The notes beneath the pieces were generated by a model. It was given only the letters and a program-made list of their open reading frames with translations, ran no database searches and was not told the origin of the DNA. A stretch of DNA of 38,183 nt, taken from contig CALMBI010000024.1 in the NCBI GenBank assembly GCA_937860115.1, positions 1 through 38,183 of the forward strand, in the 5' to 3' direction. Numbering within the stretch: position 1 is the first letter of the stretch; the number at the start of each line of letters is the position of its first letter. Made by a program: the position numbers and the translations under genes. The stretch comes from an uncultured Arcobacter sp. (GTDB taxonomy: Bacteria > Campylobacterota > Campylobacteria > Campylobacterales > Arcobacteraceae). Of this stretch, positions 3,934 through 6,430 are shown piece by piece.

Positions 3934-3960
3934 AGACTAGCATTTTTGCTAGTCTCTTTT
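3934..3960. terminator. Bidirectional intrinsic terminator
   Basis: A perfect 9-bp stem AGACTAGCA / TGCTAGTCT with a TTTT loop, followed by CTTTTATTCTTT on the plus strand and by TTTTACTT on the minus strand. It ends the 54-aa gene and the convergent histidine-kinase locus. Confidence 0.85.
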
Positions 3961-5400
3961 ATTCTTTGATTTTTAGAGGTATTTTAATAGTAAATTGTGC
4001 TCCCAAATACTTTTGCTCACTGTATTCCATCTCTTTGTTTTCCACACTAATCGTACAATCCATATATTTTTCAATCATCTCTTTGGACATATAGAGCCCA
4101 ATCCCCGTGCCATTAGTATCTGATTTTGTTGTAAATTTTGAATCAAATATTTTATCAATAATATTTTCAGGTATCCCACCTGCATTATCTTGAATGACAA
4201 TCACTCCACTGTTACCATCTTTGAGAATCTTTGTTTTCAAAATTTTAAACTCTTGTTTTTCTGCTTTTCTTTCAAATTCATCGATCGCATTTACAAAAAT
4301 ATTCATAAATATTTGAATCAATTCCCTCGGATATCCAAGAATTTCTAAATCCTCATCATATTCTTCTAACATCTTAATAGAATTTTTTTTGATTTTTTGA
4401 ACTAAAAGCTCAATAGTATGTGCATATATTGTACTTAAAAAGAAACTCTCTTTTCTCTATCCTCTTTAAAAAAATTTCTAAAATCATTTATGGTTTCAGA
4501 TAGATGCATAACGTGTTGAGTAATTTTATTAAAATGATCAATATTATCTATCGGAAGCCCTATCTCATTGTGTACGACTCCAGAACTTGAAAGTGTTGAT
4601 ATGGCACTAAGTGGTTATTTCCATTGATGAATTATGTTTTCAAGCATCTCTCCCATCATAGCCATTTTTGATTGTTGATAAATGAGTTGCTCTTTGATTT
4701 GAAGTTCCCTTTTTGCTTGAAGCTCTTTTGTGATATCCCTACCACTTCCTACAGTTCCAAGTAGTCTTCCACTATCATCAAAAAAAGGTGCTTTATGCAC
4801 CTCCAAAATTAGATACTCACCTTTTACATTTCCATACTCTTCAAAAACCATATTTTTCATATTTTGTAAAACAACTTCATCAGAATTAAAACAAAGTTCT
4901 CCAAACGTATGCCACTCTTTATTCTCTTTATGTTTCTCTCTTTCTCTCAAAGCAAAATAAATATCACCTTTACCAATAGGTTCCTCTGTATCTTTTGCCA
5001 TCAAAAGATTTTCACAGATTGCTTTGTTTGCAAAGATATATTTTCCATTTACATCTTTTGCCCACAACATATCAGGAAGATTATCAGCAAGCAACCGAAG
5101 TAATTTATTTGGATCGAGTACACCATCAAGTGAGCTATCCTCTAGATCATTTTTCTGACCATGAAAAATAATCACTCCATCATCCATTTTATCCACATCA
5201 AATATATACTGCTCACCTTGACAATAAAAAAATGTTCTCCCCATATCTTTATTGTATAGAGCATTCACGCCATCTTTAATAAGTGTATTAAGATCTGTAT
5301 TGAAAGAAAAATCATCACTAAATAGTTTCTTGAAATTATGATTATAATGTTTAATTTGATTAGATTTTACATCATATAAAAATATAATTGTTCTCTTCAT
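3959..5400 (-). pseudogene. PAS-domain sensor histidine kinase, disrupted by a stop codon and a frameshift
   Basis: Read across two lesions, this is a normal soluble kinase: an N-terminal region, a PAS domain (about residues 95-235, with NLPDMLWAKDVNGKYIFANK and DITKEL), a phospho-acceptor helix with HQWK, then an ATPase domain containing the N-box (IFMNIFVNAIDEF), DNAGGIP and the GTGIGL lid. Lesion one: TAA at 4615-4617 directly after HQWK, where relatives have Gln before PLSAI (CAA to TAA). The frame then stays open for 60 codons. Lesion two: a run of five A (plus strand) at 4437-4441 where six would keep the frame into LSTIYAHTIELL. As sequenced, the sensor half (261 aa) lacks kinase function, and the ATPase part (from 4372) has no good start. 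The promoter and GAGGAG ribosome site before the ATG at 5400 are intact, so inactivation looks recent. A sequencing error remains possible. Confidence 0.85.
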
Positions 5401-5415
5401 ACTAACTCCTCAAGG

Positions 5416-5554: not shown

Positions 5555-6430
5555 TTATAAAACTGGATTCATCAGAGCACCTTTTGTGTCAATATGTGCA
5601 ACACCAATAAGATGTCCTATTTCGTGAGCTAAAATAACTTTAAGCTCTTGTAGATTTTCAAAACCATAAATCTCTATACGATCCATGCTACTTGTGATTG
5701 TTTTTTCCCTTTGAAACTTTCCATCTTTATAAATAGTTTTTAATGTTGTTTCAATATATCCAATAGCTGCACCTTTTGTCTCTTTAAAACTTTTAGACAG
5801 ATTTTCTATCTCCCTTCGGATTCTATTATAGTTTCTTACTATCATATTATAGTTTGTAATTTTTTGATTATATTGACCCACAAGCCCTTTATATTTCATC
5901 AGTTTTTGTTGGTAGAAATTTTTCTCTTTCTTGATATTTTGTTGTTCATCTTTTACAAAATTACTTATCTTTTCATATTCCTCTTGAGTATGTTGTTTTT
6001 GATTTTCATTTTCAATGTAGTTGTTGAGCTTTTCTATTTTGATATTTATATTTTGATTTAAAAATTCAACTTCACTTTGTTTTACTACAATCTCTTCTTC
6101 TAACTGTGGGAGTATATTTTGAATATTTTCCAATTTTTCTTGGAGTTTTTTACTATTAGAGAGATTTCTTTCAATCGCAATCTTTCGATTTGAACGATTA
6201 ACAAATACTATATTGACTGGTTTTCCATCATTTGAAATATCAAAAAGATTTGCTCCAACTTGTGATTCAAGTTCTTGCTCTATATTTTTAAGAAGAGATT
6301 TCAAAATCTCTTTTGAGAGAATTGTACTAAAATGAGGATCTATAGAGCCAACTTTTATTTTTTCTACCTGTCCATATAAAAATTCTACAGAAATAAAAAA
6401 TAAAAATAGATACTTGAATATTCTTTTCAA
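5555..6430 (-). CDS. Secreted metzincin-type zinc metalloprotease, C-terminus probably truncated
   Basis: Starts with a signal peptide (MKRIFKYLFLFFISVEFLYG, cleavage near Gly20-Gln21). Residues about 86-215 are a long Glu/Lys/Gln/Asn-rich coiled coil. The catalytic end holds HEIGHLIGVAH at 269-279, the metzincin zinc motif H-E-x2-H-x2-G-x2-H, followed by Met287 in ALMNP as the Met-turn. It should be an exported, matrixin-like peptidase of the periplasm or cell surface; the substrate is unknown. The start is TTG at 6430, with AGGA six bases before it; no ATG gives the signal peptide. The gene stops four residues after the Met-turn; in-frame coding continues beyond, so a nonsense mutation is likely. 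Activity of the shortened product is uncertain. Confidence 0.8.
   Translation of the reverse strand: MKRIFKYLFLFFISVEFLYGQVEKIKVGSIDPHFSTILSKEILKSLLKNIEQELESQVGANLFDISNDGKPVNIVFVNRSNRKIAIERNLSNSKKLQEKLENIQNILPQLEEEIVVKQSEVEFLNQNINIKIEKLNNYIENENQKQHTQEEYEKISNFVKDEQQNIKKEKNFYQQKLMKYKGLVGQYNQKITNYNMIVRNYNRIRREIENLSKSFKETKGAAIGYIETTLKTIYKDGKFQREKTITSSMDRIEIYGFENLQELKVILAHEIGHLIGVAHIDTKGALMNPVL

What the first reader, a model, noticed from the sequence alone, without database searches (positions are those of the whole stretch)
3959..5400. Sensor histidine kinase broken by two independent lesions
The coding sequence of a PAS histidine kinase is complete except for a TAA directly after the phospho-acceptor HQWK (plus-strand base 4617 is A; G would give CAA, Gln) and a missing base in an A5 run at 4437-4441. 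Both lesions fall between conserved blocks that otherwise read normally (PLSAISTLS, then LSTIYAHTIELL and a full ATPase domain). The promoter and ribosome site are intact, so decay looks young.
Basis: partly seen in the sequence, partly recalled or inferred. Interest (0 to 1): 0.55.

Follow-up and report, generated by a model that had tools for sequence, protein, structure and literature searches.

The report
Dead sensor kinase among many
A bacterial sensor gene has been switched off by a premature stop and a frame slip, and it is one of about a dozen such sensors broken in this one genome, apparently a snapshot of a bacterium shedding part of its ability to sense its surroundings.

Summary
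Window 3959-5400 (-) is a PAS histidine kinase split by an in-frame TAA (4615-4617) right after HQWK and by a one-base frame loss at the A5 run 4437-4441. Two same-genus Arcobacteraceae genomes (G007, G001) carry intact orthologues (480 and 479 aa; 70 and 67% identical over the N-terminal part); G007 also keeps the purE neighbour. dN/dS is about 0.2 on both sides of the lesions and the ATPase motifs are preserved, so the loss is recent.

The case is not isolated. In the same genome (1.73 Mb draft), 12 of 25 scorable kinases of this HQW[RK]QP class are broken, against 3 of 86 sampled in three relatives (p = 4e-7). Eight kinases of the other class, each beside a response regulator, are intact, as are ABC, radical-SAM and MFS families and scorable neighbouring genes. 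Seven broken kinases have intact orthologues, mostly syntenic. Several lesions hit the phospho-acceptor box, which codon composition nearly explains (p = 0.07). The adjacent M10-peptidase gene also has a premature TAA. Best reading: ongoing loss of an expanded kinase repertoire; the principle is known, the snapshot useful.

The parts
4615..5400 (-). N-terminal open frame: PAS sensor part and first DHp helix up to HQWK, ends in the premature TAA
4615..4617 (-). premature in-frame TAA straight after the phospho-acceptor motif HQWK; both relatives read on in one frame
4442..4614 (-). second DHp helix region, still in the first frame but behind the stop
4437..4441 (-). A5 run (T5 on the coding strand) at which the frame is lost by one base
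   Evidence: frame and length comparison with L002/L003
3959..4438 (-). C-terminal part with a full HATPase_c domain; first ATG of this frame gives ORF 3959-4372, 137 aa
   Evidence: HATPase_c 1.8e-18
5406..5411 (-). GAGGAG ribosome-binding site before the kinase ATG
   Evidence: read directly
5555..6430 (-). neighbouring M10-type peptidase gene, which also ends in a premature TAA (5555-5557) about 26 codons before its open frame does

Best explanation
The locus is a recently inactivated cytoplasmic PAS sensor histidine kinase. Shown: the coding frame is interrupted twice; orthologues in two same-genus species are intact; the sequence on both sides of the lesions was under purifying selection until recently; and about half of the scorable kinases of this class in the genome are likewise broken, in stages from a single stop to a 3' remnant. 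Inferred: a terminated product would stop inside the first DHp helix just after the phospho-acceptor histidine and lack the rest of the dimerisation domain and the ATPase, so it cannot autophosphorylate; the downstream ATPase fragment, if made at all, has no histidine to phosphorylate. Inferred: the lineage is losing an expanded repertoire of HQW[RK]QP kinases (c-di-GMP and chemoreceptor genes are also few) through relaxed selection, possibly after a niche change, while kinases sitting beside a response regulator are kept.
For: Lesions and frames. Intact orthologues. dN/dS about 0.19 (N part) and 0.23 (C part) and no excess of changes behind the lesions. Genome-wide: 12/25 broken in G000 against 1/37, 1/22 and 1/27 in G007, G001 and G003, p = 4e-7. 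Intact orthologues, mostly syntenic, of L021, both L026 kinases, L027, L029 and L033, and a syntenic full-length counterpart of the L022 remnant. Control families and neighbours intact. Fewer HATPase_c, GGDEF and MCP genes than relatives.
Against: No reads or second strain of the species could be examined. The assembly is a 255-contig draft. The M10 peptidase next door is also truncated, so decay is not limited to signalling. The control loci were taken from the better-scoring HATPase_c matches of the relatives.
Confidence: 0.87

Rival explanations
1. Sequencing or assembly error: the stop and the frame slip, and those in the other kinases, come from homopolymer errors or mis-joins at the conserved H-box DNA shared by paralogues.
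For: Draft assembly with 255 contigs; one lesion lies in an A5 run; four kinases have lesions at or near the H-box, the DNA most alike among paralogues.
Against: Scorable neighbours and three non-signalling families are intact and the rest of the window reads open. Lesions include several stop codons, a deletion of about 225 codons and 3' remnants between conserved neighbours, which error does not make. The other, equally drafty genomes have 3 broken of 86. Mis-joins at a motif read in the same frame in all paralogues would give in-frame chimeras, not stops.
Confidence: 0.07
2. A functional split or recoded kinase: two polypeptides, readthrough of TAA or programmed frameshifting yields an active enzyme.
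For: Both parts keep good sequence and the ATPase fragment has an in-frame ATG at 4372.
Against: The break falls inside the DHp bundle and the stretch 4442-4614 belongs to neither open reading frame; two independent recoding events would be needed; relatives show no split; TAA ends many intact genes of the window.
Confidence: 0.03
3. General genome decay in which kinases are not special: any dispensable gene is equally likely to be broken and the kinases only stand out because they are many.
For: The adjacent M10 peptidase is also truncated; some GGDEF matches are split or stopped and three response-regulator matches contain stops.
Against: Scorable neighbours and ABC, radical-SAM and MFS families are intact; kinases beside a response regulator are intact, 0/8 against 12/25, p = 0.03. 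These controls are mostly core genes, so the test is weak.
Confidence: 0.3
4. The H-box is a target of a special mutational process that disables kinases there.
For: TAA in the same column in the window kinase and L021, two stops in the H-box of L031, and a slip just behind it in L033.
Against: The box holds 22% of the C-to-T/G-to-A nonsense-accessible codons of the core, so 3 of 5 stop-bearing genes there has p = 0.07; the region was chosen after the fact; most other lesions lie elsewhere.
Confidence: 0.03

Closest known systems
PAS-domain sensor histidine kinases with HisKA-type DHp and HATPase_c (best named relatives AtoS, FixL, ZraS)
   Same: PAS, DHp and HATPase_c order; the intact G007 orthologue matches HATPase_c 2.7e-16, PAS families, and AtoS as best NCBIfam model.
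   Different: DHp scores below Pfam's HisKA cut-off (22.6 vs 26.9 bits) and no named NCBIfam cut-off is reached; the window copy is interrupted twice; no response regulator next to it.
Loss of signalling genes in host-associated Campylobacterota (PMC9239204)
   Same: Kinase, c-di-GMP and chemoreceptor genes reduced together.
   Different: There inferred mainly from gene numbers; here many genes are still present as recognisable broken copies. No host association is known for this genome.
Arcobacter butzleri RM4018 two-component repertoire (PMC2147049)
   Same: Same family; large kinase set (37) and high density of two-component genes.
   Different: RM4018 lists only 5 pseudogenes in all and 31 kinase/regulator pairs, against 12 broken kinases here.

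Membership tests
Functional sensor histidine kinase | One open frame joining phospho-acceptor histidine, complete DHp and HATPase_c | tested here: not met
   TAA at 4615-4617 and frame loss at 4437-4441
Functional sensor histidine kinase | Phospho-acceptor H-box and ATPase motifs (N, G1, TTK, G2) present in the sequence | tested here: met
   HQWK, MNIFVNAIDE, DNAGGIP, FTTK, GTGIGL read in two frames; HATPase_c 1.8e-18
Recent pseudogene | Intact orthologue in close relatives | tested here: met
   G007 480 aa and G001 479 aa, single frames
Recent pseudogene | Signature of past purifying selection still visible on both sides of the lesions | tested here: met
   dN/dS about 0.19 and 0.23 against G007; synonymous sites near saturation
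Recent pseudogene | Lesions present in the sequencing reads | not testable with these tools
   no reads available
Signalling-repertoire decay in one lineage | Excess of broken kinases over relatives | tested here: met
   12/25 vs 3/86, p = 4e-7
Signalling-repertoire decay in one lineage | Non-signalling genes spared | tested here: inconclusive
   ABC, radical-SAM, MFS families and scorable neighbours intact, but the adjacent M10 peptidase is truncated; no whole-genome census possible

The most novel reading that the evidence does not exclude
This Arcobacteraceae lineage is in the middle of a selective, near-synchronous shutdown of its expanded HQW[RK]QP kinases while keeping its regulator-paired two-component systems: a direct view of signalling-network contraction in progress, perhaps marking a recent move to a stable or host-associated niche.
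Probability: 0.4. Interest if true: 0.5.

Novelty: new member of a known kind. Interest (0 to 1): 0.34.

Why it matters
One dead kinase is ordinary. About half of a kinase class dying in one genome, with intact and often syntenic counterparts in sister species, would let the order in which signalling genes are lost be read directly, a step usually inferred only after the genes have vanished. It also gives a mechanical reason why stops recur at the phospho-acceptor: HQW[RK]Q holds about 22% of the C-to-T/G-to-A nonsense-accessible codons of the kinase core.

Tried and rejected
Targeted mutation of the H-box was considered because the window and L021 have TAA in the same column, L031 has two stops there and L033 slips just behind it. 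With codon accessibility included, 3 of 5 stop-bearing genes in the H-box gives p = 0.07; counting L031's two stops separately, 4 of 6 gives p = 0.02: suggestive at most, and the region was chosen after the fact. TAA-as-glutamine recoding was rejected: the frameshifts remain and TAA ends many intact genes. Phase variation at the A5 run was rejected: the run is short and the TAA is not a repeat-tract lesion. No Rfam element lies at the lesions; repeats in the region are short and AT-rich. The genome-collection scan returned the G007 and G001 orthologues but no record of the window's own species. The G007 record is not in the annotated collections.

Full report
Observation. On the minus strand from ATG 5398-5400 the frame runs 261 codons through a PAS domain to ENIIHQWK and meets TAA at 4615-4617. 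The same frame then continues as kinase sequence (PLSAISTLSSS...) to the A5 run at 4437-4441, beyond which the kinase reads in another frame to its native stop at 3959. The N-terminal part matches PAS_4 and S-box models, the C-terminal part HATPase_c at 1.8e-18. A GAGGAG ribosome site is present, but promoter-like sites in the region do not exceed shuffled sequence, so the 'intact promoter' is not established.

Relatives. The window lies in a 1.73-Mb, 255-contig draft genome (G000, 97% complete). Of eight genomes of its genus, three carry this kinase: G000, G007 (record JAQUAG01, an Arcobacteraceae metagenome bin) and G001 (CAMCYD01, whose record title names Helicobacter pylori, although the genome is grouped in this genus). 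Both relatives encode it in one frame, 480 and 479 aa. In G007 it follows purE directly; in G000 an M10-like peptidase gene lies between.

Age. Codon comparison with G007 gives dN/dS about 0.19 upstream of the stop and 0.23 downstream of the frame slip. Behind the slip G000 has 18 unique residue changes against 14 and 17 in the relatives; in the N-terminal part 29 against 14 and 22. The ATPase motifs are intact. Synonymous sites are near saturation, so these are rough values, but they exclude long neutral decay.

Not alone. HATPase_c finds 41 places in G000 against 48-94 in four same-genus genomes. I fetched the G000 places and samples from G007, G001 and G003, built an HMM of the DHp+ATPase core and asked whether one open frame joins H-box and ATPase. 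The automatic list gave 11 broken of 25 in G000 at score 100 or more. Manual correction sets aside L030 (contig edge), moves L031 (two stops inside the H-box, passed the length cut) from intact to broken, and adds the second L026 kinase, which scores below 100. That gives 12 broken and 13 intact, with L030 and L032 set aside as contig-edge cases. Relatives: 1/37, 1/22 and 1/27, not hand-corrected. Fisher p = 4e-7. Eight lower-scoring kinases of G000 (on C210, C114, C91, C229, C220, C146, C185 and C93) are all intact, and each lies within about 2 kb of a response-regulator match; that these are classical HisKA/OmpR-type pairs is my inference.

Kinds of lesion. Window: stop plus slip. L021: two stops. 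L024: one stop in each of two facing kinases. L031: two adjacent stops. L033 and both L026 kinases: one frameshift each. L027: frameshift near the ATPase. L029: about 225 codons missing between two matched parts. L022 and L023: 3' remnants of about 120 codons. Intact counterparts at about 58-73% identity exist in G007 or G001 for L021, both L026 kinases, L027, L029 and L033, and the L022 remnant lies between the same neighbours as a 607-aa kinase in G007. The stages range from one lesion to a remnant, so this looks like a continuing process.

Controls. ABC_tran and Radical_SAM matches contain no stops, and the few MFS_1 matches are in long frames. Neighbours of the kinases that could be scored against the relatives, at 60-95% identity, read open. 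GGDEF (11 vs 39 in G007; two G000 places look split or stopped) and MCP (5 vs 23) are reduced, and three response-regulator matches contain stops. The M10 peptidase next to the window kinase ends in a TAA about 26 codons before its open frame does; two relatives at 41 and 40% identity continue through that column. So decay is not strictly confined to signalling.

H-box clustering. Four broken kinases have lesions at or just behind HQW[RK]QPL. That box contains 22% of the C-to-T/G-to-A nonsense-accessible codons of the core (about three of 13 per kinase), so 3 of 5 stop-bearing genes there has p = 0.07. I do not claim a targeted process.

Interpretation. The terminated product would end just after the phospho-acceptor, and the ATPase fragment lacks it; no working kinase can be expected (inference from established histidine-kinase architecture). 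The simplest account is relaxed selection on an expanded kinase class in a lineage with a small genome. Loss of signalling genes with host association is documented for Campylobacterota (PMC9239204), whereas A. butzleri keeps 37 kinases and has only 5 pseudogenes (PMC2147049). No host association is shown for G000.

Verdict. Observation and interpretation are both supported; as a single gene it is ordinary, and the added interest lies in the genome-wide pattern. Limits: no reads, no second strain, a draft assembly and a sampled control set.

Noticed in passing
window 5555-6430 (-), TAA at 5555-5557: The adjacent M10-type (matrixin-like) peptidase gene stops at a TAA just behind its Met-turn (MNPVL), while the frame stays open for about 26 more codons that match the C-terminus of two distant Arcobacteraceae homologues. 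It is absent from the other genomes of the genus and sits between purE and the kinase.
   Followed up: partly
window about 4690-5105 (-): The PAS domain (DMLWAKDVNGKYIFANKAIC...) is about 60% identical to PAS domains of kinases from Sulfurimonas, Bacteroidetes and other phyla, unusually high for a PAS sensor, suggesting a conserved ligand and horizontal spread.
   Followed up: no
L031 (G000:C237:18500-23500): Kinase with two adjacent stops (TAA TAG) and further changes packed into the H-box while the rest of its core is open; a response-regulator match with a TGA lies on the same contig at 19312-19644.
   Followed up: partly
G000:C237:310-778 and G000:C120:3350-3789: Two GGDEF genes of the same genome look split by frame changes, one with a TAA as well.
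   Followed up: no
G001 (CAMCYD010000029.1, L062): Public record titled 'Helicobacter pylori PMSS1' encodes this Arcobacteraceae-type kinase and is grouped in the window's genus; the title looks wrong.
   Followed up: no
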